Positions 2,108-35,331 of a stretch of DNA of 49,858 nt are shown here, piece after piece. The stretch's first letter is position 1. The number at the start of each line of letters is the position of its first letter. Both the position numbers and the translations under genes were made by a program. The DNA lies in contig NZ_KB893744.1 of the NCBI RefSeq assembly GCF_000374165.1, positions 181 to 50,038 of the forward strand. The letters run 5' to 3'. Source of the DNA: Parafrankia elaeagni. GTDB taxonomy: Bacteria; Actinomycetota; Actinomycetes; Frankiales; Frankiaceae. The notes under the pieces were generated by a model. It saw only the letters and a program-made list of their open reading frames with translations. It did not search any database and was not told the origin of the DNA.

Positions 2108-3925
2108 GTGGCGGTGCACGACACTCTCCTCGAGACGCTGCTCAACGACGTGTCCGCCGGCAAGATCCAGTTGCCGGACTTCCAGCGGGCGTGGAAGTGG
2201 GACGACGAACGGATCCGTTCGCTGCTCGCGACGGTCACCAGGGAGTTCCCGCTCGGGGTCATCATGTCTTTGGAGACCGGCGGCAAGGCGCAGTTCAAGG
2301 CACGCCCGCTGCAGGGCACGAAGGTTCCCGACGGAGCGGCCCCCGCGCATCTGCTGCTCGACGGGCAGCAGCGCCTCACCTCGCTCTACCACGCACTGGT
2401 CTCCAGCGAGCCCGTGCAGACCGAGGACGAGCGGCACAACGAGCTGTCGGTCTGGTACTACATCGACATCGTCCGGGCGATCGGCAGCGAGGACGAGCGC
2501 GAGGAGGCCATCGTCTCCGTTCCGGCGAACCGGCTGCTGCGCCGGGGCTCCGGGCCGGACGACGTCATCGATCTGACGAGCCGGGAGAAGGAGTGCGCGG
2601 CGGGGATGTTCCCGCTCAACCTCAGCCTGGACTCGATGGCGACGAATGACTGGCAGTGGACGTACGCAGTAGACGAGGACCGGAGACGAACCTGGGGGCG
2701 CTTCAACGGCGAGGTGCTCAAGAGGATCAACAAGTTCCTCGTGCCGTGGGTCAAGCTCCCCAAGGAGACGAGCAACGAGGCCGTCTGCACGGTGTTCGAG
2801 AAGGTCAACACCGGCGGCCTTGTCCTGAACGTCTTCGAACTGCTGACGGCAACCTACGCCGGCAACCGTGAGTACGCATCCCAGCACGGATCGGAGTTCA
2901 ATCTCCAGGAGGACTGGAAAGGGATCTCGAAGGGACTGAGCGAGAAGTACCCCGTCCTGGAGGATCTGAAGAACATCGACTTCCTCCAGGCGCTCACGCT
3001 GGTCATCAGCTACCACAAGCGCCACCACTACCTCGCCGAGCATCCGCGACGGACCACGGACGCACCGTCGATCCGGTGCAAGCGCAGGGACCTGCTGACA
3101 CTCCCGCTGGCCGACTACCGGAAATGGTCCCCCGCGGTGACGGAGGCGCTTGCCTGGGCCGGCGACTTCCTCCAGGGCCAGTGCGTCTTCCGCAGCGGCG
3201 AACTGCCGTACCGCACACAGCTCGTGCCGCTGGCCGCGATCAGGACCATCCTCGGGGAGGCCGCCGACCGGCCCGACGCCTACGAGAAGATCGTCCGCTG
3301 GTACTGGTGTGGCGTGTTCGGCGAGCTCTACGGCGGCACCACCGAGAGCCGGTTCCCGAAGGACGTCGAGCAGGTGATCGACTGGGTGAACGGCACCGGC
3401 AGGGAGCCGGACACCGTCACCGAGGCGGCGTTCCAGGAGCAGCGGCTGCACACCATGACGACGAAGGTCAGCGCCGCCTACAAGGGCGTCTTCGCGCTGC
3501 TGCTGCAGCAGGGCTGTTACGACTGGTATGCGACCGACGCGCCGATCAACGCCGACACGCTGGTGACCGAGACGGTCGACTTCCGGCAGATCTTTCCGAA
3601 GGCCTGGTTCGAGCGCGCCGGAACCAAGGACCCCCGCATGACCAGCGTGATCAACAAGTCGCCCCTCTCGCTGCGCGCGGCCAAGACGATCGGCGGTCGC
3701 TCTCCGGCGACCTACCTCGAGATGTTCGCCCGCGAGTCAGGCCTGCCGGTCGACTGGATCGACGATCTTGTCGATTCCCAGCGGATCGACCCGAAGACAC
3801 TGCGGGCCAACGACTTCGAGGCCTTCTACCAGGACAGGATCCAGAGGTTGCTCACTCTGATCGAGAAGGCGATGGGCAGGCCCGCGGGCCGGGAGACGCC
3901 CGCGTCCGTCGCTGCGTCCGACTGA
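2108..3925 (+). CDS. DUF262 (GmrSD/BrxU-like) protein with degenerate HNH-type C-terminus
   Basis: The 605-residue protein starts at GTG 2108, preceded by GGGGGA at 2095-2100. The N-terminal DUF262 (ParB/Srx-like) domain is clear: IQLPDFQRAWKW at residues 19-30, the signature DGQQR at 85-89, and VNTGG followed by a helical region. DUF262 proteins such as GmrS and BrxU bind nucleotide and act in type IV restriction, normally with a DUF1524 HNH domain. The C-terminal segment from about 488 keeps the framework of that domain (IFPKAWF, INKSPLSL, IGGRSPATYL), but where active relatives have a His pair before IFPK this protein has R493-Q494. It may therefore have lost nuclease activity. It forms a likely operon with the CBS-HEPN gene 11 bp downstream and lies just upstream of pglW, recalling BrxU beside BREX loci. 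Domain call firm; loss of activity inferred. Confidence 0.8.
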   Translation: MAVHDTLLETLLNDVSAGKIQLPDFQRAWKWDDERIRSLLATVTREFPLGVIMSLETGGKAQFKARPLQGTKVPDGAAPAHLLLDGQQRLTSLYHALVSSEPVQTEDERHNELSVWYYIDIVRAIGSEDEREEAIVSVPANRLLRRGSGPDDVIDLTSREKECAAGMFPLNLSLDSMATNDWQWTYAVDEDRRRTWGRFNGEVLKRINKFLVPWVKLPKETSNEAVCTVFEKVNTGGLVLNVFELLTATYAGNREYASQHGSEFNLQEDWKGISKGLSEKYPVLEDLKNIDFLQALTLVISYHKRHHYLAEHPRRTTDAPSIRCKRRDLLTLPLADYRKWSPAVTEALAWAGDFLQGQCVFRSGELPYRTQLVPLAAIRTILGEAADRPDAYEKIVRWYWCGVFGELYGGTTESRFPKDVEQVIDWVNGTGREPDTVTEAAFQEQRLHTMTTKVSAAYKGVFALLLQQGCYDWYATDAPINADTLVTETVDFRQIFPKAWFERAGTKDPRMTSVINKSPLSLRAAKTIGGRSPATYLEMFARESGLPVDWIDDLVDSQRIDPKTLRANDFEAFYQDRIQRLLTLIEKAMGRPAGRETPASVAASD

Positions 3926-3936
3926 CCGCCCACCAC

Positions 3937-5133
3937 ATGGAGACGCAGAGACCGCAGACACCCCTCATGGACGACATCCTCACGTCACTGGTCGACAGCG
4001 AGCTGACGATCCGGCAGCTGCTGGAACGGTTCGGCTACGGCGTCCGCAGCCCCACGGCGATCTCCGCGCTCCGCGTCCGGCTCTCCCAGGCACGGCTGAC
4101 GACCGAGCCGACCTTCGAGGCCGGCCCACTCGACACCCTGATCAAGGTCCTTCCGGTCTCGCGACCCGCGCAGGAGGACGGCCCGCCCACGCCGAGCTCT
4201 CCGGACGCGACGGTCGCCGGGGAGCCCACCTCGTCGCCTCCACCGGGTGACGCCTCGGCCTCGTCCGAGGAGATCCCGTCCCAGCGAGTCGCGGACGACG
4301 GTGCGACGGGACCGGCCGGCCAGGAGGGCCCGACCGGGCAGGAGACGCCGACCGGGCAGGAGACGCCGACCGGGCCCGGGCAGGAGGAAGCGGGCGAGTA
4401 CCCCGACGAGGAGCTCCCCGCGGGAACGCTGCGGGTCGGCGACCTGCTGTCAGCGCACCGGGAGCTCCGCACCGTCGGACCCGGGGACAGCCTTCACAAG
4501 GCCATCACCTGCATGCTCCAGTGGGACTACTCCCAGATCCCGGTGCTGGAGGGCAAGTTCCATCTCCACGGTGTCGTGACCTGGCAGTCCGTCGCCATGC
4601 TGTACGCGCACAGTCACGAACCCACCCTGGCGAAGGCGACCGACGGCAACGTCCAGGTCGTCCATGACACGGACAGCCTGCTGGCGGCGCTCGCCACGAT
4701 CACCGCATCCGACTACGTCCTGGTCCGCAACCAGCAGGGGGAGATCTGCGGCATCGTCACGATGGCCGACGTCGCGACCCGCTTCGGCGACCTCGCCCGG
4801 CCGTTCTTCGTGATCGGCGAGATCGAGCGGCTCATCCGCAGCTTCCTCACGCCTGTCTTCGACCACGATCCGGCCGTCCTGAAGGCCACCGGGAAGAAAA
4901 CCGACCGAGTCGCGGAGATGATGTTCGGAAACTACAAGTACCTGCTGGACGTGCCGGCGAACTGGCAGAAGCTCGGCTGGCCGTTCGTCGACCGCGCGGC
5001 CTTCATCGAGCTCCTCGACGACGTCCGCAAGATCCGTAACTCTGTCGCGCACTTCCGCACGGCGCCGCTGACCGCCGAGGAGAACCGCCAGATCAACCAG
5101 CTCCACGGAATGCTGAAGAAGCTCGCCCTGTAG
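3937..5133 (+). CDS. CBS-pair protein with C-terminal HEPN-like RNase motif
   Basis: The frame stays open upstream inside the DUF262 gene; I place the start at ATG 3937 (ATG 3967 is the alternative), giving 398 residues. The N-terminal helical part (about 10-60) is unassigned. Next comes a Pro/Gly/Glu/Thr-rich linker with a short tandem repeat, then two CBS repeats (about 165-290), including RVGDLL, SQIPVLEG, GVVTWQSV and GIVTMADVA. CBS pairs usually bind adenine nucleotides. The last 100 residues end in a helical domain with RKIRNSVAHF, giving R367-x4-H372, the Rx4-6H motif of HEPN ribonucleases. A nucleotide-sensing CBS module joined to a HEPN toxin beside a DUF262 gene and pglW suggests an abortive-infection effector. 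Domains are seen; the toxin role is inferred. Confidence 0.72.
   Translation: METQRPQTPLMDDILTSLVDSELTIRQLLERFGYGVRSPTAISALRVRLSQARLTTEPTFEAGPLDTLIKVLPVSRPAQEDGPPTPSSPDATVAGEPTSSPPPGDASASSEEIPSQRVADDGATGPAGQEGPTGQETPTGQETPTGPGQEEAGEYPDEELPAGTLRVGDLLSAHRELRTVGPGDSLHKAITCMLQWDYSQIPVLEGKFHLHGVVTWQSVAMLYAHSHEPTLAKATDGNVQVVHDTDSLLAALATITASDYVLVRNQQGEICGIVTMADVATRFGDLARPFFVIGEIERLIRSFLTPVFDHDPAVLKATGKKTDRVAEMMFGNYKYLLDVPANWQKLGWPFVDRAAFIELLDDVRKIRNSVAHFRTAPLTAEENRQINQLHGMLKKLAL
4331..4372 (+). repeat. 18-bp tandem repeat coding the linker of the CBS-HEPN protein
   Basis: The unit cgaccgggcaggagacgc occurs at 4331-4348 and 4349-4366, with a further partial copy. It encodes TGQETP-type hexapeptides in the flexible linker before the CBS pair. 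Being a multiple of three, copy-number change would alter linker length without a frameshift. Confidence 0.8.
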
Positions 5134-5222
5134 GTGGGCTTGTGGGGGTGGGCTAAGGTCGCGGGCTGGGGCAACGGGGGTCGTCGTTCGGAGCGTGGCG
5201 GCGGGAGCAGCGGGGAGACGGG

Positions 5223-8200
5223 GTGCAGGACAGGCGTTGGACGACGGTCACGGCGTCGCAGTTCCCGCATGAGCGGGAGGCGCTGGAGCACGTCCAGCGG
5301 CTGCTGCCGGACGCGGAGCCGTACCGGGCCTGGTCGAACTTCACCTTCGTCGCGTCGACCGGGCACCTGCGCGAGGTCGACCTGCTCGTCGTCGCCCGCG
5401 GCGGGGTGTACCTCATCGAGATCAAGAGCTGGGCGGGCCGGCTGACGGCGTCGGGGTCGAACTGGGTCCAGCACCGGCCGTCCGGCAGCGACCTGATCTT
5501 CGACAATCCGCTGATCCTCGCGAACCAGAAGTCCAAGGAGCTCAAGCACCTCCTGGAGACCGCGGCCCGCGCGCAGGGGCTCGGCAAACTGCGGATGCCG
5601 TTCTTCCAGCCGGCGGTCTTCCTCTCGAACGGGACGTTGAAGGTCGAGCTGCCGGACTTCCAGCTGCACGGGATCTTCGGCCCGGAGCCCGCCGATGCCA
5701 CCGGCGGCGCCCCGGTCAGGGCGGGCACCGCGGGTGCGCTGCCGCCGATCTGGTCCAGCCTGCTGGACGCGCCGCTACGCGACGAACGCGCCCGGATCAG
5801 CCCGGAGACGTCCAGGCGGCTCGCGACGCTGCTCCCGGCCGCCGGGATCGCGCGCAGCCGGCGCCACCACCGCGTCGGCGCGTGGGAGCTGGAGTTCCCG
5901 GCCTTCGAGTCCGGCCCGACGTGGCAGGACTACCACGCCCGGCACACCCAGATGGGCTCCGCGCGCCGCCGCGTGCGGATCTACCTGGTGGAGACGGGCG
6001 CGGCCGAGGCCGAGCGCCGCACCCGGGAGGCGGCGGCCAGGCGCGAGTTCCTCGTCCTCAACGGGATCGACCACCAGGGCATCGTGCAGGTCGACGGCCT
6101 GGAGCAGCACGAGGCCGGCCCGGCGCTGATCTTCCGGCACCACCCCGACGAGATGCGCCTCGACCACTATCTCGCCCGGTACGGCGACCGGCTCGACGCC
6201 GGCACCCGGCTGCGGATGATCCGTGAGCTCGCCGAGACGCTCGACTACGCGCACGGCCGCCACCTCTACCACCGGGCGCTCGCGGCCCGCAGCGTCCTCG
6301 TCGTGCCGGCCGCCCGCCGCGGCGACGACGACCAGGCGGAGAGTGAGCGGCGCTGGCTCTCCCCCCGGCTGGTCATCAGCGACTGGCAGGCGGCGGCCCG
6401 CGACATCGACGCGTCGACGGGGCAGCTGACCGGCTCGATGACGACGGCCTCGGTCGCGCTCGCCATCGAGCCCGCGCACCGGTTCCTGCCGCAGCTGGAA
6501 CGGGCCGCGGAGAGCTACCTCGCCCCCGAGGTCGACGCCCCGTACCCGGACCCGGTCGGCATCGACGTGTTCGGCCTGGGCGCGCTCGCCTACCTGATCC
6601 TGACCGGTGAGGCCCCCGCGCCGACCCGCAACGCGCTGAAGGCGCGGCTCACCGAGGCCGGCGGGCTGCACCCGTCCGCGGTCGTCGACTCGCTGTCCGA
6701 GACGGCGAACGACCTGGTCGCGCTGGCCACCCGGGCGAAGCCGGATGATCGCTTCGCCACCGTCGGCGAGTTCCTCGACTGGCTGGAGCTCGTCGTCGAC
6801 GACGTCACGGCGCCTGCTGTCGAGGCGACGGAAAGCGCGACCACCGCGACCACGCCGACGGTCGACCCGCCGGAGGAGCCGGCGCCGGAGCTGGACCCGT
6901 TGGAGGCCGAGCGCGGCGACCTCGTCGGCGGGGAGTGGCGGATCAGAAGCCGCCTCGGTACCGGCTCGACGAGCCGCGCGTTCCTCGCGCACAACGAGAA
7001 GACGAAGCGTGACGAGGTCCTGAAGGTCGCGCTCTCCGACGAGCGGGCAGCGCGGCTCGCGCACGAGGCGGACGTGCTGGGCCGGCTGCGCGACTCGCGG
7101 GTGATCCGGCTGGCCCGGCAGGACACCCTCGTCATCGGCGGGCGCACCGTGCTCGTCCTCGACCACGCGGGCGAGCAGACCATGGCCCGCAAGCTGCGCG
7201 AGGGCCGGCTGTCGGTCGACGAGCTGGAGATCTTCTCGAACGACCTGTTCGTCGCCGTCGACTACCTCGACGGCGAGGGCGTCGCGCACCGCGACCTCAA
7301 GCCCGACAACATCGTGCTGCGCCGCCGGCCCAACCGGACCTGGCAGCTGGTGCTCATCGACTTCTCGCTGGCCAACCACTCCGTGCGCGACACGGCCGCC
7401 GGCACGCCCCGCTACCTGGACCCGTTCCTCGGCGCCGGCACCCGCACCACCTACGACGACCAGGCCGAGCGGTACGCCCTGGCGGTCACGCTGCACGAGA
7501 TGGCCTCCGGCGAGCTGCCGCTGTGGGGCGACGGCTCCACCGAGGCGCGGTTCACCGAGGGCCCACCGACGGTGGCGACCGAGGCGTTCGACCCGGCGAT
7601 CCGAGCCGGCCTCACCTCCTTCTTCCTGCACGCGCTCGACCGGGACGCGGGCAGGCGGTTCGGCTCGCTGAAGGACATGCGCGACGCCTGGCTCGCCGTC
7701 TTCCGCGCCGCCGACTCGACGCCGCCGGTGCCGAGCGTCCACCCGGCCGCCGGCGAGCAGCCGCTGACCCCGGACGAGGCCGCGGCCCAGGCGACCGAGG
7801 CCACACCACTCGAGCAGGCGGGCCTGTCGCCGCGCGCCGTCTCGGCGGCGCACCGGCTGGACGCGACGACCGTCGGCGACCTGCTCGACCTCGGCTCGAA
7901 GGACATCATCGGCCTGCCCGGCCTGGCCGGTAAGACCCGCCAGGAGCTGCAGGCCCGGATCCGGCAGTGGCGCCGCGCGCTCGCCCCGGCTCCGCAGGGC
8001 CCGCCAGCGGACGTGCCGACGGCGGCCCAGCCCACGACGGCGGCGGACTACGCCCGGATGCCGGTCGAGGCGGTGGCCGACCGGCTGCTGCCCCGCTCCA
8101 CGCGGGCCACCACCGAGGCCAACGCCACCCGCCTGCTGCTCGGCCTGCCAGATGCCGCCGGCACCCTGCCGGACCTGCCGCTCTGGCCGGGGCAGCAGCT

Positions 8201-9806
8201 GGTCGCCGAGCGGGTCGGGGTGACGCCGGGCCGGATCGCCCAGGTGCTGATCGCGCGGCGCAGGGCCTGGCACGCCGACGCCGCCGTCCGTTCGGTGCAC
8301 GACGAGCTGGTCGAGATCCTCGCCGACGCCGGCCGGGTGATGGGTTTCGACGAGCTGGTCACCGCGGTGCTCGCCCGCCGGGGCAGCTCCCCGGGGACGA
8401 TCGCGCCGCGGGCGCGGGCGGCGGCGGTCGTCCGGGCCGCGCTGGAAACCGTCGACCTGGACTCCGAGCCGCGGATCGCCCGGCGGAAGTACAAGGACAG
8501 CGACCGGGTTCTGGTCGCCCTGGAGGTGACCGAGGCCGACAGCCCTGACACCCCGTCCGCGCCGGCGCTGCTCGACTACGCGGTGGCGCTCGGCAAGGTC
8601 GCCGACCGGCTGGCGAAGGCCGAGCAGCTCCCCAGCCCGGCGACCGTGCTGCGCGAGCTCGCCGCGGACACCCCGGACGGGATGCCGGCGCTCGCCGCGC
8701 CGCGCCTCGTCCGGCTGGCCGCGGCCGCCTCCCGCACTGCCGCGACCAACGCCCGCCTGGAGATCTACCCGCGCGACCTCGGCCTCGTCCGGGCACTGCG
8801 GCTCTCCCAGGCCGGCGTCCTCCTCCCAGCCCGCCCCGGCGGCATCCCCGCGCAGCCCACCGGCTCCGACGAGCGTGCCGAACGCGCCGAGCGCGATCTC
8901 CTGCTCGTCGAGACGGTCCACGAGCGGGTCCTGGCCCGGTTCCCGGGGCTGGCCACCGAGCTGCCGCCGCATCCGCGGCTCCACGGCCCGCTGCGCGACG
9001 CCGGGTTCACCCTCGACTGGGACCACGCCCGCGGCGGCTACGCGCAGCCGCACGGCCTGCTCTCCTCGACCGGCCTCGGCTCCCGGCCGACACCGGTCGT
9101 CCGCCAGCCCACCGGCCTGGGTGCCCGGGCCGGCCGCTCGGGCTCGGCGCTGGCAGACGACAGCCCCGGACGGATCGCCGCCGCGACCGCCGAGCAGCGC
9201 CTGGCCGCGGCCGCCGAGACCGGCGGGTTCCGGGCGCTCACCGTCCGGCGCAGCCACTACCTGACAGCGCGCGCCGAGCTGACGAAGCCGCACCGGTTCG
9301 CCGCCGAACCGGTCGACGTCGCCGCCGTGTTCCTCGACGCCCTGCACGCCGAGGTCGACCCTCGGCCCAAGCCGACGTGGGCGACGATCCTGCGCGCCGA
9401 CACCGCCGAGCCCGGCAGCCGCGCCGCCGCGAACCTCGCCGAGTACGTGCGGCTCGCCTGGGAACGGGCCGCGCCGCTGCTCACCGCACTGGTCGACGCC
9501 CCCGCCGGCCGGGTTGGCCCGGGCGGGCAGCCCGCGCCGCTGCTGCTGCACGACGCCGGCGTCTTCGGCCGCTACGACGGCCGGGGGCTCGACGTGCTGT
9601 TCACGCTCGCCGAGCGGGCCCGGACGCGGGCCGGCGGCCGGCCGCTGTGGCTGCTCTGCCCGACGACCGAGCCGAGCCTGCCGCCACGGCTCGACGGCGC
9701 GCTCGTGCAGCTGGTGACCGGAAGCGACTGGGTGCCGCTGCCGGACTCGTGGGTGGCCAACCTGCACCGCGCCGCGGACAACGAACCCGGCCTCGCCGCG
9801 TCGTAG
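5223..9806 (+). CDS. pglW: BREX-2/Pgl system Ser/Thr protein kinase PglW (NERD + pseudokinase + kinase)
   Basis: The 1527-residue protein starts at GTG 5223 after GGGGAGACGG. Residues 10-125 form a NERD nuclease-related domain (REVDLLVVARGGVYLIEIKSWAG-type core, read as D...E-x-K). A first kinase-like domain (about 270-520) has HRA at 350-352 where HRD is expected and no DFG, so it is a pseudokinase. The second (about 568-830) looks active: glycine loop GTGSTSRAF, VLKVA lysine, HRDLKPDN at 689-696 and DFS (713-715) in place of DFG. A helix-hairpin-helix follows (about 863-915), then roughly 600 residues of PglW-type C-terminus. PglW is the autophosphorylating kinase of the Streptomyces coelicolor Pgl system. 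It precedes the AAA-nuclease and pglX genes on the same strand. Identification is firm. Confidence 0.93.
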   Translation: MQDRRWTTVTASQFPHEREALEHVQRLLPDAEPYRAWSNFTFVASTGHLREVDLLVVARGGVYLIEIKSWAGRLTASGSNWVQHRPSGSDLIFDNPLILANQKSKELKHLLETAARAQGLGKLRMPFFQPAVFLSNGTLKVELPDFQLHGIFGPEPADATGGAPVRAGTAGALPPIWSSLLDAPLRDERARISPETSRRLATLLPAAGIARSRRHHRVGAWELEFPAFESGPTWQDYHARHTQMGSARRRVRIYLVETGAAEAERRTREAAARREFLVLNGIDHQGIVQVDGLEQHEAGPALIFRHHPDEMRLDHYLARYGDRLDAGTRLRMIRELAETLDYAHGRHLYHRALAARSVLVVPAARRGDDDQAESERRWLSPRLVISDWQAAARDIDASTGQLTGSMTTASVALAIEPAHRFLPQLERAAESYLAPEVDAPYPDPVGIDVFGLGALAYLILTGEAPAPTRNALKARLTEAGGLHPSAVVDSLSETANDLVALATRAKPDDRFATVGEFLDWLELVVDDVTAPAVEATESATTATTPTVDPPEEPAPELDPLEAERGDLVGGEWRIRSRLGTGSTSRAFLAHNEKTKRDEVLKVALSDERAARLAHEADVLGRLRDSRVIRLARQDTLVIGGRTVLVLDHAGEQTMARKLREGRLSVDELEIFSNDLFVAVDYLDGEGVAHRDLKPDNIVLRRRPNRTWQLVLIDFSLANHSVRDTAAGTPRYLDPFLGAGTRTTYDDQAERYALAVTLHEMASGELPLWGDGSTEARFTEGPPTVATEAFDPAIRAGLTSFFLHALDRDAGRRFGSLKDMRDAWLAVFRAADSTPPVPSVHPAAGEQPLTPDEAAAQATEATPLEQAGLSPRAVSAAHRLDATTVGDLLDLGSKDIIGLPGLAGKTRQELQARIRQWRRALAPAPQGPPADVPTAAQPTTAADYARMPVEAVADRLLPRSTRATTEANATRLLLGLPDAAGTLPDLPLWPGQQLVAERVGVTPGRIAQVLIARRRAWHADAAVRSVHDELVEILADAGRVMGFDELVTAVLARRGSSPGTIAPRARAAAVVRAALETVDLDSEPRIARRKYKDSDRVLVALEVTEADSPDTPSAPALLDYAVALGKVADRLAKAEQLPSPATVLRELAADTPDGMPALAAPRLVRLAAAASRTAATNARLEIYPRDLGLVRALRLSQAGVLLPARPGGIPAQPTGSDERAERAERDLLLVETVHERVLARFPGLATELPPHPRLHGPLRDAGFTLDWDHARGGYAQPHGLLSSTGLGSRPTPVVRQPTGLGARAGRSGSALADDSPGRIAAATAEQRLAAAAETGGFRALTVRRSHYLTARAELTKPHRFAAEPVDVAAVFLDALHAEVDPRPKPTWATILRADTAEPGSRAAANLAEYVRLAWERAAPLLTALVDAPAGRVGPGGQPAPLLLHDAGVFGRYDGRGLDVLFTLAERARTRAGGRPLWLLCPTTEPSLPPRLDGALVQLVTGSDWVPLPDSWVANLHRAADNEPGLAAS

Positions 9807-22944: not shown

Positions 22945-22947
22945 CCG

Positions 22948-24709: not shown

Positions 24710-24855
24710 AAACTAGCGGGCGTGGTCGATCCGGGCAAGCCAAGCACCGATGGAGCGTCGGCCGGTGAAGGTAGCCTGCGACACATCACGGTATGTTTGG
24801 CTGTCGCGCAGGCAAAGCCGCACCAGTACTCGCACGACCAAGCCCGGGGGGCCGT

Positions 24856-27800: not shown

Positions 27801-28740
27801 CGTCAACGCGTTCGCCGAGCAGACCGACCGCGCCTGGTACAGGTACGGCGGGATCCTGCCCGCCCCGCCCGAGCTGACGGCCGGGATCAGGGACATGACG
27901 CTGCGCGAGCAGCCGCTGCCCAGCCCCGAGGACTGGGCCGCCGCCGGCCAGCGGGCTCAGGCCCTCTTCGGAGTGCAGCCGCCGCCGCTGCGGCGCGGCC
28001 GGCTGATCCGCACCTTCGCCGAGGAGCTGACGAAGAAGGCCCAGGACCATTTCACGGCGACGCGGGACCTGGTGACCGCGCTGGAGGCACACGCCGCCGA
28101 TCTCGGTCTCGACCCACGGACCGGGTGTGCCCTGGAGCCCGCCGGAGCCACCGCGGGACGTCTTCGGACCGCCCGGGCCGCCCACGACCTGGTTGCGGCG
28201 CTGGACGGCCCGAAGGCCGGCACGGAGATCGTCACGCGGCTGGCGCATGCCGATCTCGCGGGTCCGGCGGAGCGGTTGGCGCGCAGCATCAGCCGCGCCG
28301 CGGCCGTCGCCGGCGCTGTCACGTCCGCCCCGTGGGGCGAGATGTTCGGCATGATCGCCACCTTGCCGGAGCCCTACCGGACGGAGGCCCAGGAGATCCT
28401 CGGGCGCATCCGGAAGGCAGGCGCCGCCGAGGAGCTGACGACCCCGCTCGCCGACGTGCTGACCAGCTCCCGGGCCAGGGCGGCCCAGCTCATCCGCCGG
28501 GCCGTCAGCGCGCCACCCACCGACCCGCGGCCCACCGACCCGACTCCATCCCCGCCCAGCGAGCAGCCGGTGGTGATCGGCGGGAACGGCCCGGCGGATC
28601 CCGGGCAGGGAACCAGTCCTCCGGCCCAGCGGCAGTGGCGCGTGCGGCCGGCCGAGCTGGAGCAGGCAGTCACCGAGGTCCGTGAATATGTCGGTGACCA
28701 GCCCGGCGAGGTCGAGATCATCTGGCGGCCGGCACGGTGA
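24856..28740 (+). CDS. pglY: BREX-2/Pgl ATPase PglY
   Basis: I take ATG 24856 as start (GGGGGG four bases upstream), giving 1294 residues, the size expected for PglY; an in-frame extension to 24,793 lacks a ribosome site. The N-terminal P-loop ATPase has Walker A GSFGSGKS at 76-83 and Walker B VILFLDE with D278-E279, followed by NNMGDQAFVSREVQK. The rest is long, mostly helical and typical of the BrxC/PglY family, with a Gly/Ser-rich linker near residue 940 (PGGGSGDGSGSG) and a proline-rich tail before the last 40 residues. PglY is the large ATPase of BREX-2, essential with PglZ. Its stop overlaps the pglZ start (GTGA). Identification is firm from order and motifs. Confidence 0.92.
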   Translation: MTSPSSQPLLRDVIDIPERTSDSDFVLKLTEGVADAAATMRDYVLTDRLVHNFDEALGLIAQAVGTGASKGVYLHGSFGSGKSHFMAVLHALLRGEPAARALDDLAAVLGKHDGDLAGKKFLLVPFHMLGAKSIEQRVLGGYADRLRALHPEAPIPAVHRAEALLDEARGLRAKVGDAAFLEELNRAGSGGGEDAEEDEWGDDASWTAAELDAALAPTGADAAARRRLTSDLLSTWFPNTYRDLREDAEGFISLDQGLSEIARHAKGLGYDAVILFLDELILWLANNMGDQAFVSREVQKVTNFVEGGLGARPIPVVSFIARQRDLRELVGESIAGDVRLSFLDVLTLADGRFDKIILEDRNLPLIANRRLLRAKDTAAAARIEKAFETTAKVRAEVWDTMLGGSAQLGADRDAFRLSYPFSPAFMETLVHVSSALQRNRTALKLMRQLLVAQRDELRLGQVIPLGDLWDVITRGGDAPFTDVLKVEFEAAQRLYNRKLRPYLLDTEGLDEDILARVRRAQSTGAAVDGELAVKVRRFTADDRLVKTLLLSALAPSVPALRNLTPRRLSALNHGSITSPIPGGEFGIVGKKVERWAGQFGEVKFLPVEGGDPGVGLELVDVEIDGILSQTTAYDSGGNRRALVRKLLVEELGVTVTDDAYGDRLDLVWRGSRRSAEVVFGSLRGADLRDDQLEPADPESWRLVIDYPFDDAGRPPVDARARVERLRGGGAPHRTVCWIPADLTATRLADLGMLVRLDHLLNRNRFDSHAQHLSADDRQRARGVLKSRYDALLTKTRTLLRMAYGLAKREEQDASDYSDWLRTLWPGLTPTLAFGATFREAARRLVGDLLADQFPGHPDLDPDQTGHPARPADYKLVLSYVAKAAEANGNSVEVIRSDRAPMRRIAPALGLGIMHEARFELGREWVDHFTRKAAQAAASGPGGGSGDGSGSGGAEGELRVADLLTWIDEPRPRGLDSPVAALIVNAFAEQTDRAWYRYGGILPAPPELTAGIRDMTLREQPLPSPEDWAAAGQRAQALFGVQPPPLRRGRLIRTFAEELTKKAQDHFTATRDLVTALEAHAADLGLDPRTGCALEPAGATAGRLRTARAAHDLVAALDGPKAGTEIVTRLAHADLAGPAERLARSISRAAAVAGAVTSAPWGEMFGMIATLPEPYRTEAQEILGRIRKAGAAEELTTPLADVLTSSRARAAQLIRRAVSAPPTDPRPTDPTPSPPSEQPVVIGGNGPADPGQGTSPPAQRQWRVRPAELEQAVTEVREYVGDQPGEVEIIWRPAR

Positions 28741-31739
28741 GCGTCCTGTCACCCGCGGCCGGCCCAACGGGCTCTGGCACGCCCGCGCCGCTGGTCACCA
28801 ACGCGATGCTGGTCGGCCGGGTCGCCCGGCTGTTGCGCGGGTCGGCCGGCACCGGCAGGCGTGCGCGGATCCTGCTGGTGCGGGCACAGCCCGAGTGGCC
28901 CGGTCCCGGTGAGCTGCTGGTCGGCGGCAGGACGGTGCGGGTCGTGGCCTGCGTCTCGCCGCTCGGCGTGCTCGAGGAGGTCGCGCGCTGGGGGCGGGAG
29001 CCGGTGCCCGAGGGCTGGCTCGTGCTGCTCACCGACGCCGACGAGGAGACCCTGGGCGACACCGTGCTCGCCCAGGTCCACCGTCAACGCGTCGACGTGA
29101 TCGAGCCGTGGGCCGCGGTCGCGGAGGACTTCGGCGCCGCCCAGCTCGACCCACGGCTGCGCACACATGCCTACCGCTGGATGGCCAAGGCACTGCTGGA
29201 GGCACGTCCGCCGGCTGGCTGGCCGCGCCGGCCAGGCGGTGTCCTCAGCCTCGAGGACGCGCTGGCGGAGCTGACCGCCGTCCGGCTCGGCCTGACCGAG
29301 CTGGGCCTCGGTGCCGCCGACCTGGACATCGCCACGCTGCTGCGCTGGACGACGGTTCCCGGGGCGACCGAGGCCTTCCGTCGGCTCGGCGACGACGAGC
29401 GCGCCGGCATCACCGCGTTCCTGCGGGAGCGGACCGGGCACGCGGGACTCGCGTTGACCACGCTGGTCGCCGCCGGCAACGGCGAGCGTTCGCTGGCCCT
29501 CGGCCTGGTCTGCGACTGCCTGTGGCCCGGGAAGGACGGCCGCTCCCCCAGCCTGGACGCCGCGGCCGTCGAACGGGCGAAGGGCCGGGTGGAACGCTAC
29601 TTCGGCGACACCCAGCTCAACGACGAGACCATGCGCCGGTTCGCCGACGCGGTCCGTGAGGCCGTCCGCACCGGGATGAACACGCCGGACGACCTGCCGG
29701 GGCTGCTCGACACCGCCGACCGGCTGCTCGACGAGCTCGACGCGCGGGCTGCCGGCGCGACCAGCGACATCCTGCGGGCCGGGTTCGACGGCCGGCTGTC
29801 CGCCGTCGCCGCGACACTGCGTGGTTTCCTGGCCGCGGCCGGCTCCGGCGTGCACCACACGTTCCTGCGGGCCTCGGCCCGTGAGGTCGCGGCCGCCGTC
29901 GACGTCCTGCGGGCGCATCTGCTCGCCGGTCTCGAGGCCGGGCAGGTCGAGCGGGCCGAGATGGCGGCCCGCGTCGCCGGCTGGCTCGCCGGTCGGCCGG
30001 TGGACGGGCCGGGCACGCTCGCTGCCGCGCTCGAGGGCTATCTCGACGATGCGGCCTGGGCTGACGTCGCGCTCGGGCAGCTCGCCGTCGGCGACCCGTC
30101 GCCCACGGTCGGCGCCGTCTACGGCGACCTGTACCGGGCCGCGATCCGGCGGCGGCATGCCCTCGACGCCCGGTTCGCCCGGCTGCTTGCGGACTGGACG
30201 ACGACCGGCAGCCTGCCCAGCGAGGCCGAGGGCGCGCCGCTGGGCATCGAGGAGGTCCTCGACCGCGTGGTCGCCCCAGTCATCAGGGCCCGGGGCAAGG
30301 CCCTGCTCGTCGTGCTCGACGGGATGAGCGCCGCCGTCGCCATCCAGCTCGCCGCCGCGCTGCGAGGCGAGCGGTGGGAGGAATGTGACCCGCTCGGCGC
30401 CAGCGCGGGCGGCGACAGTGCGGGCGGCACCAGCGCGGGCGGCACCAGCGCTGGCGCCGCCCGGCGGCGGGCCGCACTGGCCGTCCTGCCGACGGTGACG
30501 GACAGGTCGCGTGCCTCGCTGCTCGCCGGCCGTCTCCTGACGGGCGACAAGGCGAAGGAGAAAAGCGAGTTCGAGGCTCACCCGCGCTGGCAGCGGCGCG
30601 CGGTCCGGTTGTTCCACCACGCCGACCTCGACGGCACGCCGGGCTCCGCGCTCGACCGGGAGCTCAGCGACGAGCTGACCTCGAACACCCCGCTCGTCGC
30701 CGTCGTCATCAACACCATCGACGATCTGCTGGACTCCGGCCGGCAGCGCGACGACGGCGGCTGGAGCCTCGCCGACGTCGGCAAGCTGCGCACCATCCTG
30801 CGCTACGCGCAGACCGCCGACCGGGCCGTGATCCTCACCAGCGACCACGGCCACGTTCTCGACCACGGCGCGTCGGCAGTGGCCGCCGAGGACGCCATCT
30901 CGGCTCGGCACCGCATCCCGGTTGACGGTGTCTCCACGGATCTTCGTGACGGCGAGGTCACACTCACCGGGCCGCGGGTGCTCGTGCCCGGCGCGCGGAT
31001 CGTCGCGCTCTGGGACTCGGAGCTGCACTACCGGGGCCGCAAGGGCGGCTACCACGGCGGCGCGGCGGCGGCGGAGGTGACCGTGCCCGTGTTGGCGTTC
31101 CTGCCGTTCCGCCTGTCGGCGGCGTCGACGAGCCGCAATGTGCCGGCAGGCTGGCGGCTGCTACCCGACCAGCGGCCCCGCTGGTGGTCGCTGGAGCAGC
31201 AGGACCTGCTCGCCGGGCTCGGCGGCGGCGACACCGTGCTCGTCGGTCGGCACCGTGGCGAGGCCGCTCCCGTCGCCGTGCCGACGACACAATCGCGCAA
31301 ACGGCACAAGGCTGCGGAGGCGCAGGCCGGTCCCGCGCTGTTCGACCTGCCGGAGGAGGCGGCCCCGGCCATGTCGGCTGCATCGGCCGCGTCGCCAGTG
31401 CCCGCCGAGGCCGCGCCGACGACGGGTGTCGACGTGCTCGTCGCCGCGCTGCTGGCCAGCGAGCTGTTCCGGTCCCAGCTCGGTGGCCTGGCGCGGCGGG
31501 TGCCGGTCGAGAAGGTCGAGGCGGCGGTGCGAGCGCTGCTCGACGCGGGTGGCACGCTGGCGACCAGCGTCGTCGCCGAGCGGGCCGGGGAGCTGGCGCA
31601 TCGGGCCGCCGGCTTCGCCGTCAACCTGCAGCGAGTCTTCAACGTCGACAACTACCCGGTGCTGGAGCCGCTCGACGACGGGCACACACTGCGGCTCAAC
31701 GTGGACCTGCTGGGCCAGCAGTTCGGGCCGCTCGGGTGA
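28737..31739 (+). CDS. pglZ: BREX-2/Pgl alkaline-phosphatase-superfamily protein PglZ
   Basis: The 1000-residue protein starts at GTG 28737, overlapping the pglY stop by four bases. The PglZ domain lies at about 520-720: LLVVLDGMSAAVA with metal-ligand D528, LPTVTDRSRASLL as the nucleophile region, and ILTSDHGHVLDHG with D703-H704-G705-H706. These match the metal-binding layout of the alkaline phosphatase superfamily. The N-terminal 500 residues are helical and specific to PglZ. A winged-helix-like C-terminus ends in NVDNYPVLEPLDDG. A four-unit GxSAG repeat sits between the first and second catalytic segments. PglZ is required in every BREX type; its in vivo substrate is not settled. The brxD start overlaps its stop, so translation is coupled. 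Confidence 0.93.
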   Translation: MSVLSPAAGPTGSGTPAPLVTNAMLVGRVARLLRGSAGTGRRARILLVRAQPEWPGPGELLVGGRTVRVVACVSPLGVLEEVARWGREPVPEGWLVLLTDADEETLGDTVLAQVHRQRVDVIEPWAAVAEDFGAAQLDPRLRTHAYRWMAKALLEARPPAGWPRRPGGVLSLEDALAELTAVRLGLTELGLGAADLDIATLLRWTTVPGATEAFRRLGDDERAGITAFLRERTGHAGLALTTLVAAGNGERSLALGLVCDCLWPGKDGRSPSLDAAAVERAKGRVERYFGDTQLNDETMRRFADAVREAVRTGMNTPDDLPGLLDTADRLLDELDARAAGATSDILRAGFDGRLSAVAATLRGFLAAAGSGVHHTFLRASAREVAAAVDVLRAHLLAGLEAGQVERAEMAARVAGWLAGRPVDGPGTLAAALEGYLDDAAWADVALGQLAVGDPSPTVGAVYGDLYRAAIRRRHALDARFARLLADWTTTGSLPSEAEGAPLGIEEVLDRVVAPVIRARGKALLVVLDGMSAAVAIQLAAALRGERWEECDPLGASAGGDSAGGTSAGGTSAGAARRRAALAVLPTVTDRSRASLLAGRLLTGDKAKEKSEFEAHPRWQRRAVRLFHHADLDGTPGSALDRELSDELTSNTPLVAVVINTIDDLLDSGRQRDDGGWSLADVGKLRTILRYAQTADRAVILTSDHGHVLDHGASAVAAEDAISARHRIPVDGVSTDLRDGEVTLTGPRVLVPGARIVALWDSELHYRGRKGGYHGGAAAAEVTVPVLAFLPFRLSAASTSRNVPAGWRLLPDQRPRWWSLEQQDLLAGLGGGDTVLVGRHRGEAAPVAVPTTQSRKRHKAAEAQAGPALFDLPEEAAPAMSAASAASPVPAEAAPTTGVDVLVAALLASELFRSQLGGLARRVPVEKVEAAVRALLDAGGTLATSVVAERAGELAHRAAGFAVNLQRVFNVDNYPVLEPLDDGHTLRLNVDLLGQQFGPLG
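30396..30455 (+). repeat. pglZ: 15-bp tandem repeat in pglZ
   Basis: Four 15-bp units (30396-30410, -30425, -30440, -30455), the third being ggcaccagcgcgggc, encode GASAG, GDSAG, GTSAG, GTSAG inside the PglZ domain. The unit is a multiple of three, so copy-number change would lengthen or shorten a surface loop without a frameshift. Confidence 0.8.
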
Positions 31740-33103
31740 CCGGCGCCGCCGTCAGCGCCGCGCGGCGACGCGACGTCCTGGACGCCCTGCGGCGTGGGGC
31801 GGTGCCGGCCGCGGGGCTGGATCTGCTGGCTGTGGGGCTGGACAGGTTCGAGCGTTCCGTGGGCGAGGACCTGGCCGCGGTCGCGTCGGGCGGGTCGGTG
31901 TTCAAGGCGGTGCGGGGCGAGTACGGGTCGGGAAAGACGTTCTTCACCCGGTGGCTGGCCGAGCGGGCGAAAAGGGCGGGGCTGGCGACGGCCGAGGTAC
32001 AGATCTCGGAGAACGAGACGCCGCTGCACAAGCTGGAAACGGTCTACCGGCGGCTCACCGAGCGGCTCGCCACGTCGACCTTTCCGCCGAGCGCGCTGCG
32101 CAACGTCGTCGATGGCTGGTTCTATGCGCTGGAGGAGGACGTCCTCGCCGCCGATGCCGCGGCAGGCAACGACCCGGCCACGTTGGAGAAGGCGGTGGGC
32201 GAGCTGTTCGACCGGCGGCTGCTCGACGTCGGTCGAACAGCGCCGGCGTTCGCCGCCGCGCTGCGTGGCTACCGGTCCGCGATCGTGGCCGGTGACGAGG
32301 CGACCGCGTCGGCGCTGCTTGCCTGGCTCGGCGGGCAGCCGCACGTCGCCGCCAGCGCCCGCCGGGCCGCCGGTGTCCGTGGCGACCTGGACCATTTCGG
32401 GGCGCTGGGCTTCCTGCAGGGACTACTCGTCGTGCTGCGCGACAGCGGGTACAAGGGGCTGCTCGTCGTGCTGGACGAAGTCGAGACGCTGCAGCGAGTC
32501 CGCTCCGACGCACGAGACAAGGCGCTGAACTCACTGCGCCAGCTCATTGACGAGGTGCAGGGCGGCCGATTCCCTGGGCTGCATATCGTGATCACCGGAA
32601 CACCCGCGTTCTACGACGGGCCACAGGGGGTGCAGCGGCTCGCGCCGCTCGCGCAGCGGCTGGCGACCGACTTCTCGACCGACGCACGGTTCGACAATCC
32701 GCGGGCGGTGCAGCTCCGGCTCACCGGCTTCACCGAGGCGTCGCTCATCGAGCTCGGAGCGCGGGTCCGGGGGCTGTTCGCCGGCGGCGCCTCACTCGAG
32801 GCCGCGGCCCGGATCGAAAGGCTGGCCGATGACGCCTATCTCGCCGAGCTGGCCGGCGCGGTCGCGGGTCGGCTCGGTGGCAAGGTCGGCGTCGCGCCAC
32901 GGCTGTTCCTGAAGAAGCTCGTCGCCGACGTTCTCGACCGCGTCGACCAGCACGCCGACTTCGACCCGCGCCGGGACTACCCGCTGACGCTCACCACTGC
33001 CGAGATGACGGACCTGGAGCGCAATTTCGCTGGACGAGCCGCCGCATCCGCCACATCCGCCACATCTGCCATATCCGCCGACGATATCGACCTGGACCTG
33101 TAA
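31736..33103 (+). CDS. brxD: BREX-2 ATP-binding protein BrxD
   Basis: The 455-residue protein starts at GTG 31736, overlapping the pglZ stop (GTGA); the frame is open further upstream but antisense-like. Walker A is GEYGSGKT at 61-68 and Walker B LLVVLDE with D247-E248, followed by a helical C-terminus with RLTGFTEASLIELGARV. Size, motifs and position between pglZ and the helicase fit BrxD, the BREX-2 ATP-binding (DUF2791-type) protein. The last residues are a short Ser/Ala/Thr repeat (TSATSAIS) coded by imperfect 9-bp DNA repeats. The brxHI ATG shares one base with its stop. Its biochemical role is unknown; it is assumed to work with BrxHI. Confidence 0.88.
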   Translation: MTGAAVSAARRRDVLDALRRGAVPAAGLDLLAVGLDRFERSVGEDLAAVASGGSVFKAVRGEYGSGKTFFTRWLAERAKRAGLATAEVQISENETPLHKLETVYRRLTERLATSTFPPSALRNVVDGWFYALEEDVLAADAAAGNDPATLEKAVGELFDRRLLDVGRTAPAFAAALRGYRSAIVAGDEATASALLAWLGGQPHVAASARRAAGVRGDLDHFGALGFLQGLLVVLRDSGYKGLLVVLDEVETLQRVRSDARDKALNSLRQLIDEVQGGRFPGLHIVITGTPAFYDGPQGVQRLAPLAQRLATDFSTDARFDNPRAVQLRLTGFTEASLIELGARVRGLFAGGASLEAAARIERLADDAYLAELAGAVAGRLGGKVGVAPRLFLKKLVADVLDRVDQHADFDPRRDYPLTLTTAEMTDLERNFAGRAAASATSATSAISADDIDLDL

Positions 33104-35331
33104 TGGCGGACCGGCCGGACGTGGCACCACCGGACACGGCACCACTCGACGCACCGGACCTGCTGCATCCGGTGGTGCTGCACCACATCGTGAACTCGTT
33201 GCAGTGGCCCGGGTTGCGGCCGTTGCAGGAGGCTGCGGTGGCGCCGCTGCTCGGTGGGTCGGATGCGTTGCTGCTGGCGCCGACGGCCGGGGGGAAGACC
33301 GAGGCGGCGATGTTCCCGACGCTGTCGCGGATGGCGTCCGAGAACTGGCAGGGCACGTCCGTTCTCTACGTCTGTCCGCTCAAGGCGCTGCTGAACAATC
33401 TGGCTCCCCGGCTGGAGACGTACACCGGCTGGCTCGGGCGCCAGGCCGCCGTCTGGCACGGGGACGTGACGACCAGCAGACGGGAGCGGATCCGTCGCGA
33501 ACGGCCGGACGTCCTGCTCACCACACCCGAGTCGCTCGAAGCGATGCTGGTCAGCGTCCGCACCGACCATCGCGGCTTCTTCGCCGGCGTACGGGCTGTG
33601 ATCGTCGACGAGGTGCACGTCTTCGCGGGTGACGACCGGGGCTGGCACCTGCTGGCCGTGCTGGAACGGTTGCGACGGATCATCACCGCCGAAGCAGCCG
33701 AAGCGGCCGGCGCGGGCGCGGTCCGGCCCGAGCTGCAGATCGTGGGACTGTCCGCGACGGTCGGCAACCCGGCCGACCTGCTCCGCTGGCTCCAGGGCTC
33801 CGGCGCCGGCCGCCGGCCCGGTCTTGTGGTCGCGCCCGACATGCCGGTCGCACCTGCCGTGCCGGCGGTCGCAACCGCGTCGGCGGCCGGCCCGCCGCCG
33901 GGCGAGATCGCGCTTGACTACGTCGGCTCGGTGCCGAACGCGGCGAAGGTACTCGCCACGCTGCACCCGGGCGAGAAACGGCTCGTCTTCTGCGACTCGA
34001 AGCAGCTCGTCGAACAGCTCGGCAGCGAACTGCGTGCCCGCGGCGTGACCACGTTTCTCTCCCACGCGTCCCTGTCGCTCGACGAGCGGCGCCGCTCCGA
34101 AGAGGCGTTCGCCCAGGCTCGCGACTGCGTGATCGTCGCTACCAGCACGCTGGAACTGGGCATCGACGTCGGCGACCTCGACCGCGTGATCCAGGTGAAC
34201 GCCCCCGGCTCGGTCGCGTCGTTCCTCCAACGCCTCGGCCGGACGGGGCGCCGGCCGGGAACCGTCCGCAACTGCCTGTTCCTGACCCTCACCGAGGACG
34301 CGCTCGTCCAGGCCGCCGGCCTGCTGCTGCTGTGGGGACGAGGCTGGGTCGAACCGGTCGTCGCCCCACCCGAGCCACGGCACATCGTCGCCCAGCAACT
34401 GCTCGCCTACTGCCTTCAGGAGAACAAAGTCGGTGACCGGCTCTGGGCCGACGAGTGGAACGGCCTGGCGCCCTTCGACCAGTCCGCCGAACCGATCGTC
34501 CGTCACCTCCTCCGCCTGGGATTCCTCGACTCCGACGGCGGCATGCTTTTCGTCGGCCCGGAAGCCGAACGCCGTTTCGGCCACCGGCACTTCTCCGAAC
34601 TGACCGCCGTCTTCACCGCGGCGCCCGAGTTCACCGTCCTCTCCGGCCGCACCGAGATCGGCCGCACCGACCCGATGCTCCTCTGCGACCCGGTCGAAGG
34701 CCCACGGCTGCTCCTGCTCGCCGGCCGCAGCTGGCGTGTCACCCACACCGACTGGAAACGCCGCCGCTGCTTCGTCGAACCCGCCGACAGCGGGGGCCGC
34801 GCCCGCTGGACCAGCGCCCTTCCCCCGCTGTCCTTCACCATGGTCAGAGCCATCCGCGACGTCCTCCTCGGAGCCGACCCCCAGGTCGCCACGACCACAC
34901 GCGCCGCCACCCGCCTGACCGAGATCCGCGAGAAGCACACCGACCTCGTCCACCCCGCCGGCACCATGATCGTGCGTGAGGCGGAAGCCGACGTCCGCTG
35001 GTGGACGTGGGCCGGCCACCTCGCCAACCGCACCCTCACCGCCTCCCTCGGCGATCTCGCCGACCCCCGTCAGAACGCCGACGAAGCATTCATCCGGCTA
35101 CGTTCTGACCTGACCCCGGCTATGTGGAAGGCCGCCACTCCGGATCTGGAAAAGCGGCTCTGTCTGCCCCACGTGGACGAACAGGCCCTGGCCGGCCTGA
35201 AGTTCAACGCGGCCCTACCCCCACGCCTGGCCGAAGCCACCCTCGCCACCCGCCTGGCCGACCTGCCCAGCGCGAAGGCGGTTCTCGCCGAACCGGTCCG
35301 GTGGTACACCATTCGGCGCGAATCGCAGTGA
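33103..35331 (+). CDS. brxHI: BREX-2 Lhr-like DEAD/DEAH helicase BrxHI
   Basis: The 742-residue protein begins at ATG 33103, overlapping the brxD stop by one base (TAATG). Superfamily 2 helicase motifs are in order: LRPLQ (Q-like), Walker A APTAGGKT at 59-66, CPLKALLNN (Ia), TTPESLEAML (Ib), DEVH at 169-172 (II), GLSATVGN (III), STLELGIDVGDLDRVIQ (V) and QRLGRTGRRPG (VI). After the two RecA-like domains comes an Lhr-type winged-helix and C-terminal region of about 300 residues. In BREX-2 loci this gene (brxHI) closes the operon, as here. It probably translocates on or unwinds nucleic acid. The substrate is unknown. Identification is firm. Confidence 0.9.
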   Translation: MADRPDVAPPDTAPLDAPDLLHPVVLHHIVNSLQWPGLRPLQEAAVAPLLGGSDALLLAPTAGGKTEAAMFPTLSRMASENWQGTSVLYVCPLKALLNNLAPRLETYTGWLGRQAAVWHGDVTTSRRERIRRERPDVLLTTPESLEAMLVSVRTDHRGFFAGVRAVIVDEVHVFAGDDRGWHLLAVLERLRRIITAEAAEAAGAGAVRPELQIVGLSATVGNPADLLRWLQGSGAGRRPGLVVAPDMPVAPAVPAVATASAAGPPPGEIALDYVGSVPNAAKVLATLHPGEKRLVFCDSKQLVEQLGSELRARGVTTFLSHASLSLDERRRSEEAFAQARDCVIVATSTLELGIDVGDLDRVIQVNAPGSVASFLQRLGRTGRRPGTVRNCLFLTLTEDALVQAAGLLLLWGRGWVEPVVAPPEPRHIVAQQLLAYCLQENKVGDRLWADEWNGLAPFDQSAEPIVRHLLRLGFLDSDGGMLFVGPEAERRFGHRHFSELTAVFTAAPEFTVLSGRTEIGRTDPMLLCDPVEGPRLLLLAGRSWRVTHTDWKRRRCFVEPADSGGRARWTSALPPLSFTMVRAIRDVLLGADPQVATTTRAATRLTEIREKHTDLVHPAGTMIVREAEADVRWWTWAGHLANRTLTASLGDLADPRQNADEAFIRLRSDLTPAMWKAATPDLEKRLCLPHVDEQALAGLKFNAALPPRLAEATLATRLADLPSAKAVLAEPVRWYTIRRESQ

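What the first reader, a model, noticed from the sequence alone, without database searches (positions are those of the whole stretch)
2108..35331. Split type 2 BREX (Pgl) locus with three non-canonical genes fused into the kinase/methyltransferase block
pglW and pglX form one block, and pglY-pglZ-brxD-brxHI form a second, translationally overlapping block 9.6 kb away. Block 1 also carries a DUF262 protein, a CBS-HEPN protein and an AAA/PD-(D/E)XK fusion, all co-oriented. From memory the Streptomyces coelicolor pglWX and pglYZ pairs are also apart, but the extra effectors would make this an expanded Pgl system: methylation-based recognition joined to nucleotide sensing, RNase and nuclease arms.
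Basis: partly seen in the sequence, partly recalled or inferred. Interest (0 to 1): 0.75.

Follow-up and report, generated by a model that had tools for sequence, protein, structure and literature searches.

The report
Dead restriction enzyme paired with RNase
Next to a standard bacterial anti-virus system sits a two-gene add-on in which a relative of a virus-DNA-cutting enzyme has lost its cutting site and is paired with a predicted RNA-cutting protein, whose E. coli relative is a proven virus defence; the same pair was found inside this kind of system in many other actinobacteria.

Summary
The genes are as described: a complete type-2 BREX (Pgl) set in two blocks, with DUF262, CBS-HEPN and AAA/PD-(D/E)XK genes in block 1. 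But the three extras are two unrelated things. (1) DUF262 + CBS-HEPN is a portable two-gene module. In a genome scan for CBS-HEPN, 22 of 40 pair loci lie inside type-2 BREX, in four positions/orientations; 18 lie elsewhere. CBS-HEPN is homologous to DS-11, a validated one-protein E. coli anti-phage system. The DUF262 protein is of BrxU/GmrSD type but has lost the HNH dyad: 44 of 44 CBS-HEPN-paired members lack it, 13 of 13 unpaired relatives keep it (one clade, so one event). In BrxU, mutating either dyad residue abolishes DNA cleavage but not NTP hydrolysis. I infer a nuclease-dead type IV restriction NTPase that senses infection and controls an RNase. (2) AAA/PD-(D/E)XK is a dispersed multicopy family (28 of 59 genomes, this one included), with no sign of belonging to Pgl. 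The 'split' is cargo in the pglX|pglY slot. Type-2 BREX, GmrSD and DS-11 are known; my literature searches did not find the HNH-dead pairing or its recruitment to BREX-2.

The parts
2108..3925 (+). DUF262 (GmrSD_N) protein, 605 aa: N-terminal NTPase domain with DGQQR kept; C-terminal HNH-like region without the (D/H)H dyad (R493-Q494 instead)
3937..5133 (+). wHTH-like - tandem CBS - HEPN protein, 398 aa, DS-11-like; Y198 = DS-11 Y157; R367-N-x3-H372
   Evidence: NCBIfam NF053863 DS11_antiphage 2.1e-74, 250.4 bits against a cut-off of 260; full-length hhalign to the E. coli protein; motif mapping; model pLDDT 81.0
5223..9806 (+). pglW (NERD nuclease, tandem kinase-like domains, C-terminal half)
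   Evidence: PADLOC PglW 1603.8 bits; NCBIfam NF033442 1626.5 bits; Pfam NERD and Pkinase
9893..11524 (+). AAA ATPase with putative PD-(D/E)XK C-terminus; copy of a dispersed multicopy family
   Evidence: Pfam AAA_35 3.7e-7; 28 of 59 genomes, this one included; stretch 9768-11528 alone shared with the G018 region; shared upstream element
11660..15244 (+). pglX methyltransferase
   Evidence: PADLOC PglX 1683.8 bits; DUF7008 1.7e-165
24793..28740 (+). pglY (BrxC-like ATPase); true start probably 24856
   Evidence: PADLOC 1501.6 bits; NCBIfam BREXATPasePglY 1483.3 bits, under its cut-off of 1700; start by comparison with relatives
28737..31739 (+). pglZ
   Evidence: PADLOC 906.7 bits; NCBIfam BREX_PglZ_2 924.6 bits
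31736..33103 (+). brxD (start taken as GTG 31736, not the ORF start 31184)
   Evidence: PADLOC BrxD 667.6 bits; start list
33103..35331 (+). brxHI helicase
   Evidence: PADLOC BrxHI 1059.1 bits
22666..24195 (-). cargo in the pglX|pglY gap: HTH-M78 peptidase gene (22948-24195) and a small PIN-like ORF (22666-22944)
   Evidence: Pfam Peptidase_M78 3e-18; segment 22670-24815 in the sister genome at 88.5% DNA identity; the PIN label is my reading of the sequence, not a database hit

Best explanation
The locus is a standard type-2 BREX (Pgl) system carrying cargo in three slots. The first cargo, DUF262 + CBS-HEPN, is a portable two-gene defence module. The DUF262 subunit is a GmrSD/BrxU-type NTPase whose HNH active site is gone, so it should no longer cut DNA but should still bind and hydrolyse nucleotide and probably contact DNA. 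The partner is a DS-11-type ribonuclease: the CBS pair binds an adenine nucleotide and gates a HEPN dimer. Proposed working: the DUF262 subunit senses invading DNA (by analogy modified DNA, which BREX does not restrict) or a disturbed BREX complex, its NTP state changes, and it releases or activates the CBS-HEPN RNase, which cleaves RNA and stops growth. Shown by computation: gene content, HNH-dyad loss with pairing, kept NTPase, CBS and HEPN residues, recurrent BREX-2 linkage. Inferred: physical complex, trigger, RNA target, suicide outcome. The AAA/PD-(D/E)XK gene is a separate autonomous cargo gene.
For: Genome scan with the CBS-HEPN profile: 48 loci, 40 with DUF262 directly upstream; in 37 where both genes were called, 14 overlap by 4 nt. 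22 of the 40 lie with at least two type-2 BREX genes in the 10-kb flanks: 18 next to brxD on the opposite strand (17 with pglZ seen on the other side, L120 at a contig end), 2 between pglZ and brxD co-directed, 1 divergent and 1 co-directed upstream of pglW. The BREX label needs at least 7 changes on the tree. Check not selected by the pair: of 14 BREX-2 loci from a sample of 81 Streptomyces genomes, 3 carry the pair at pglZ|brxD and 2 carry AIPR there. HNH dyad absent in 44 of 44 paired, present in 13 of 13 unpaired; paired members form one clade, 100/97. BrxU D474A and H475A lose DNA cleavage and resistance but keep NTP hydrolysis (PMC8565348, passages). DS-11 homology, the Y157 position (19 Y, 5 F of 24, the E. 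coli protein included) and RN...H (24 of 24); in DS-11 Y157A and HEPN mutants abolish defence (PMC13092281, passages).
Confidence: 0.6

Rival explanations
1. Passenger: the pair is an independent defence module that lands in BREX junctions only because these are permissive slots in defence islands; there is no functional link with Pgl.
For: 18 of 40 pairs lie outside BREX and 14 of 15 such genomes tested lack BrxD; the pglZ|brxD slot also takes AIPR, the pglX|pglY slot an SLFN-g3 helicase, and the pglW|pglX gap a TIR protein gene; both strands are used.
Against: 22 of 40 in BREX-2 against two Druantia-like and one type IV neighbour among the non-BREX loci whose neighbours I searched (8 loci, 7); the pair sits at one junction in 20 of the 22.
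Confidence: 0.45
2. Expanded Pgl: DUF262, CBS-HEPN and AAA/PD-(D/E)XK are all working parts of one Pgl machine.
For: Co-directed, close-packed genes 2108-15244 in this genome and in its sister genome; no + strand terminator-like site in 1900-15400.
Against: Trio near pglW in 1 of 21 other pglW-bearing genomes of the sample; AAA/PD-(D/E)XK is multicopy with many fragments in 28 of 59 genomes and shares a leader element with dispersed copies.
Confidence: 0.1
3. Toxin-antitoxin pair: DUF262 is simply the antitoxin that neutralises the HEPN toxin.
For: Tight coupling (4-nt overlap in 14 of 37); HEPN domains are common in toxin-antitoxin systems (PMC3710099, passages).
Against: The E. coli homologue is a working one-protein system (PMC13092281, passages) and 8 of 48 CBS-HEPN loci show no DUF262.
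Confidence: 0.25
4. The DUF262 protein still cuts DNA through other residues, and the pair is a two-armed DNase + RNase effector.
Against: The dyad needed for cleavage in BrxU is lost in 44 of 44 paired members and the His position varies (Q, L, M, Y, P, R, H), as expected of a released constraint.
Confidence: 0.12

Closest known systems
Type-2 BREX / Pgl (pglW, pglX, pglY, pglZ, brxD, brxHI)
   Same: All six core genes present and matched by PADLOC models; two blocks as in S. coelicolor (pglWX and pglYZ 6 kb apart, PMC4365076, passage).
   Different: Carries a DUF262/CBS-HEPN pair upstream of pglW, an AAA/PD-(D/E)XK gene between pglW and pglX, and about 9.6 kb of cargo between pglX and pglY.
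DS-11 (DefensePredictor; NCBIfam NF053863)
   Same: CBS pair with the [YF]SQ adenine-contact position and HEPN RNx3H; 28% identity along the length to the E. coli protein annotated with that name.
   Different: DS-11 is reported as a one-protein system; here it is paired with a DUF262 protein, and its score (250.4) is just under the family cut-off (260).
BrxU / GmrSD type IV restriction enzymes
   Same: DUF262 NTPase domain with DGQQR and C-terminal HNH-like region; BrxU is likewise a gene inserted inside a (type-1) BREX locus (PMC8565348, passages).
   Different: The D/H-H dyad of the DHIYP motif is lost, and a predicted RNase gene follows.
Auxiliary effectors of BREX (Rakesh and Krishnan 2026, PMC12839542; sections 22 and 35 part 1 and passages seen)
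   Same: GmrSD, HEPN and PD-(D/E)XK genes are reported there as recurrent BREX neighbours.
   Different: 'CBS' and 'DUF262' do not occur in its main text; in what I saw, HEPN and GmrSD are separate effectors, not an HNH-dead/HEPN pair.
HEPN genes in Pgl operons and CBS-HEPN fusions (Anantharaman et al. 2013, PMC3710099; passages seen)
   Same: Already notes HEPN genes in a few Pgl operons, CBS-fused HEPN, and a HEPN fusion with DUF262 and HNH (VNG7073).
   Different: The passages seen do not combine CBS-HEPN with DUF262 or place it in Pgl.

Membership tests
Type-2 BREX | pglW, pglX, pglY, pglZ, brxD and brxHI at one locus | tested here: met
Type-2 BREX | site-specific adenine methylation and phage exclusion | not testable with these tools
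   needs methylome and phage assays
GmrSD/BrxU type IV restriction enzyme (DUF262 protein) | DUF262 NTPase domain with DGQQR | tested here: met
   DGQQR in 56 of 57 aligned proteins, DAQQR in L176
GmrSD/BrxU type IV restriction enzyme (DUF262 protein) | C-terminal HNH nuclease with (D/H)H-I-(F/Y)-P dyad | tested here: not met
   R493-Q494 in the window; 44 of 44 paired members lack the dyad, 13 of 13 unpaired keep it
GmrSD/BrxU type IV restriction enzyme (DUF262 protein) | overall BrxU-like structure | tested here: met
DS-11 anti-phage protein (CBS-HEPN) | curated NCBIfam score cut-off of 260 bits | tested here: not met
   250.4 bits, E 2.1e-74, profile covered 1-305 of 305; homologous but outside the curated cut-off
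DS-11 anti-phage protein (CBS-HEPN) | CBS adenine-contact Tyr and HEPN RNx3H | tested here: met
   window Y198 and R367-N-x3-H372 align with E. coli Y157 and R330
DS-11 anti-phage protein (CBS-HEPN) | one-protein system | tested here: not met
   DUF262 directly upstream in the window and in 40 of 48 scanned loci
PD-(D/E)XK nuclease (AAA protein) | significant PD-(D/E)XK profile match | tested here: inconclusive
   PDDEXK_9 E 0.075 and, in a second copy, 0.15; motif by eye only

The most novel reading that the evidence does not exclude
A type IV restriction enzyme has been turned into a nuclease-dead sensor that commands a nucleotide-gated HEPN RNase, and type-2 BREX repeatedly recruits this pair as a second line that acts on what BREX cannot restrict (modified DNA or BREX inhibition): DNA restriction replaced by RNA-level abortive defence within a BREX locus.
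Probability: 0.35. Interest if true: 0.78.

Novelty: new variant of a known kind. Interest (0 to 1): 0.62.

Why it matters
If right, it shows a defence enzyme losing its own catalytic site and handing the effector step to a different class of nuclease, and it gives DS-11-type CBS-HEPN proteins, whose ligand is reported as still undiscovered, a natural partner through which the trigger can be sought. It also makes the question of what extra genes do in Pgl/BREX-2 loci directly testable, since the same junction is empty, or holds the pair or AIPR, in different Streptomyces. The AAA/PD-(D/E)XK result is a caution against reading co-direction in one genome as one system.

Tried and rejected
Rejected: 'trio = one expanded Pgl system' (AAA/PD-(D/E)XK is dispersed). 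Rejected for now: AAA/PD-(D/E)XK as a transposon with defined ends. The stretch shared with the G018 region is 9768-11528 only, but in 30 rows (one copy entered twice, as L035 and L084) I saw by eye an upstream element resembling a -10 region in most, not all, and nothing conserved beyond the stop codon. My first view that the pair is unrelated to BREX (relatives only) was overturned. Viral carriage of CBS-HEPN: the viral-contig scan with the single protein found no relative (close relatives only). The VIA search of the CBS-HEPN model was filled by CBS domains, so the HEPN and wHTH parts were barely tested by structure; they rest on the sequence motif, weak sub-threshold Pfam HEPN hits (pEK499_p136 0.025, DUF4145 0.2) and DS-11 homology. 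Pfam found no significant family in the DUF262 C-terminus. PADLOC also gives the DUF262 protein a partial match to a candidate family, PDC-M55C (2.4e-22), and HEC-05, not followed. A 90-genome phylum sample gave one further DUF262 relative, unpaired and with HH kept. Novelty searches: and in-paper searches; the library holds only openly licensed papers, no preprints, and no supplements were read. Of the papers, PMC12839542 was seen as abstract, sections 22 and 35 (part 1 of 2) and passages; PMC3710099, PMC8565348, PMC4365076 and PMC13092281 as passages; all others as search listings. Rows dropped or left out: one search tested 16 of the 18 non-BREX pair loci (L095 and L102 left out); alignments A3 and A4 used 25 and 23 of the homologues held; tree 122 left out L145, L146 and L150, found through BREX; the query alignment of the genome scan (A2) itself held two BREX-linked copies (window, G006) and four others. 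L099, counted as non-BREX, has a PglX-like partial gene about 5 kb away. Some unpaired DUF262 rows are near-copies (L162/L177).
Full report
OBSERVATION. The window holds a complete type-2 BREX (Pgl) gene set. PADLOC models match PglW, PglX, BrxC-PglY and BrxD and PglZ and BrxHI with 668 to 1684 bits. Block 1 is DUF262 (2108-3925), CBS-HEPN (3937-5133), pglW (5223-9806), an AAA protein (9893-11524) and pglX (11660-15244). Block 2 is pglY, pglZ, brxD and brxHI (24793-35331; pglY probably starts at 24856) with overlaps of 4, 4 and 1 nt. The extras are separate genes, not fusions. The pattern scan shows no terminator-like site on the + strand in 1900-15400, so co-transcription is possible but untested.

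THE SPLIT. In 7 of the 20 pglW loci fetched pglW, pglX and pglY are seen contiguous (L052, L054, L056, L057, L058, L064, L066); in the rest an insert, decay or a contig end intervenes. In the sister genome G006 (its contig has the length of Frankia sp. EI5c NZ_LRTK01000029.1, L089) block 2 follows pglX after 4.8 kb on the same contig and shares an M78-peptidase segment with the window's gap. The gap is therefore cargo in the pglX|pglY slot, and S. coelicolor shows a 6-kb gap between pglWX and pglYZ (PMC4365076, passage).

AAA/PD-(D/E)XK GENE. It matched in 28 of 59 genomes, this one included, up to 11 matches in one genome, many of them fragments. Of 20 regions around other copies that I chose and fetched (mostly about 5 kb on each side), 1 (L076) holds BREX genes, and there the copy sits between pglX and pglY. 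A 62-residue remnant lies in the pglX|pglY gap of G006 too, so some affinity for BREX slots is possible. The copy in G018, a genome without pglW at E 1e-60, shares window 9768-11528 at 85% DNA identity and nothing else of window 1-16500. Most copies share a short upstream element, none a downstream one (by eye). I read it as an autonomous, often-moved cargo gene. Its nuclease label is weak.

DUF262 + CBS-HEPN AS A MODULE. Of 59 genomes 22 have pglW, this one included; the pglW loci of all 21 others were fetched. One has the pair upstream of pglW (G006); one (G007) has only DUF262 remnants upstream of a 93%-identical pglW and no CBS-HEPN; the other 19 show none in the flanks held, some of which are short contigs. 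G022 and G024 hold CBS-HEPN on another contig than pglW. A scan of the species-genome collection (84,980 genomes by the tool's description) with the CBS-HEPN profile gave 48 loci, 40 with DUF262 directly upstream. 22 of these 40 lie with at least two type-2 BREX genes: 18 next to brxD on the opposite strand (17 with pglZ on the other side; L120 ends first), 2 between pglZ and brxD on the same strand, 1 divergent from pglW, 1 co-directed with pglW (L089, whose genome G006 was in the query alignment). A 40-kb target in an 8-Mb genome would be met well under 1% of the time by chance (my estimate). The BREX label needs at least 7 changes on the DUF262 tree, though it is clustered (shuffled mean 13.8), so the link is not one inherited arrangement. 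Against a strict link: 18 of 40 pairs are elsewhere, two beside Druantia-like helicases and one beside a type IV restriction gene among the neighbours searched, and 14 of 15 such genomes tested have no BrxD match.

THE OTHER DIRECTION. Of 81 Streptomyces genomes 15 have BrxD. Of the 14 other than the centre genome, 3 carry the pair at pglZ|brxD, 2 carry AIPR, 1 a gap of about 1 kb with no pair, and 8 almost nothing. The junction is a cargo slot with alternative contents.

MECHANISM. Most likely an NTP-dependent, nuclease-dead GmrSD sensor controls a nucleotide-gated HEPN RNase; inside BREX-2 it would act on invaders that escape or inhibit BREX. The complex, trigger and target are inferred. Passenger and toxin-antitoxin readings remain open.

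RELATION TO PRINT. BREX auxiliary GmrSD, HEPN and PD-(D/E)XK genes are described (PMC12839542, sections 22 and 35 part 1), as are HEPN genes in Pgl operons and CBS-HEPN fusions (PMC3710099, passages). The pairing of HNH-dead DUF262 with CBS-HEPN and its place in BREX-2 did not appear in searches (listings) or in-paper searches.

Noticed in passing
13184-13735 in pglX: The window and its sister genome G006 align at 89% DNA identity over 2011-13183 but not over 13184-13735; PglX is 74% identical against 92% for PglW, and GC is 0.57 in 12-14 kb: looks like a swap of the target-recognition part of PglX.
   Followed up: partly
15331-15951: Cytidine/deoxycytidylate deaminase-like gene on the - strand just after pglX (Pfam 7.6e-20), not shown to belong to BREX.
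   Followed up: no
22666-24195: HTH-M78 peptidase gene with a small PIN-like ORF just upstream of the pglY block; the M78 protein is 92% identical at the same place in G006: possible toxin-antitoxin cargo.
   Followed up: partly
L147:12923-14671 and the same junction in L151: AIPR gene (Pfam 2.7e-36 in L147; same-length look-alike in L151) in the pglZ|brxD slot where other Streptomyces carry DUF262 + CBS-HEPN.
   Followed up: partly
L050:14454-17639: TIR-NB-ARC-TPR gene on the opposite strand between pglW and pglX in another Frankiaceae genome.
   Followed up: no
L164, L171, L175: HNH-intact DUF262 relatives directly downstream of drmC-like genes on cyanobacterial plasmids.
   Followed up: partly
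L049: Genome G007: pglW 93% identical to the window's, DUF262 reduced to remnants, and a nearby brxHI stretch with stop codons: a decaying BREX locus.
   Followed up: partly
L178:1952-2137 (G006:C29:102651-102836): A 62-residue remnant of a second AAA/PD-(D/E)XK copy in the pglX|pglY gap of the sister genome.
   Followed up: no
L099:16213-18360: A PglX-like partial protein (PADLOC 1.7e-170) about 5 kb from a DUF262 + CBS-HEPN pair in a Streptomyces genome with no BrxD match: possible BREX remnant.
   Followed up: no
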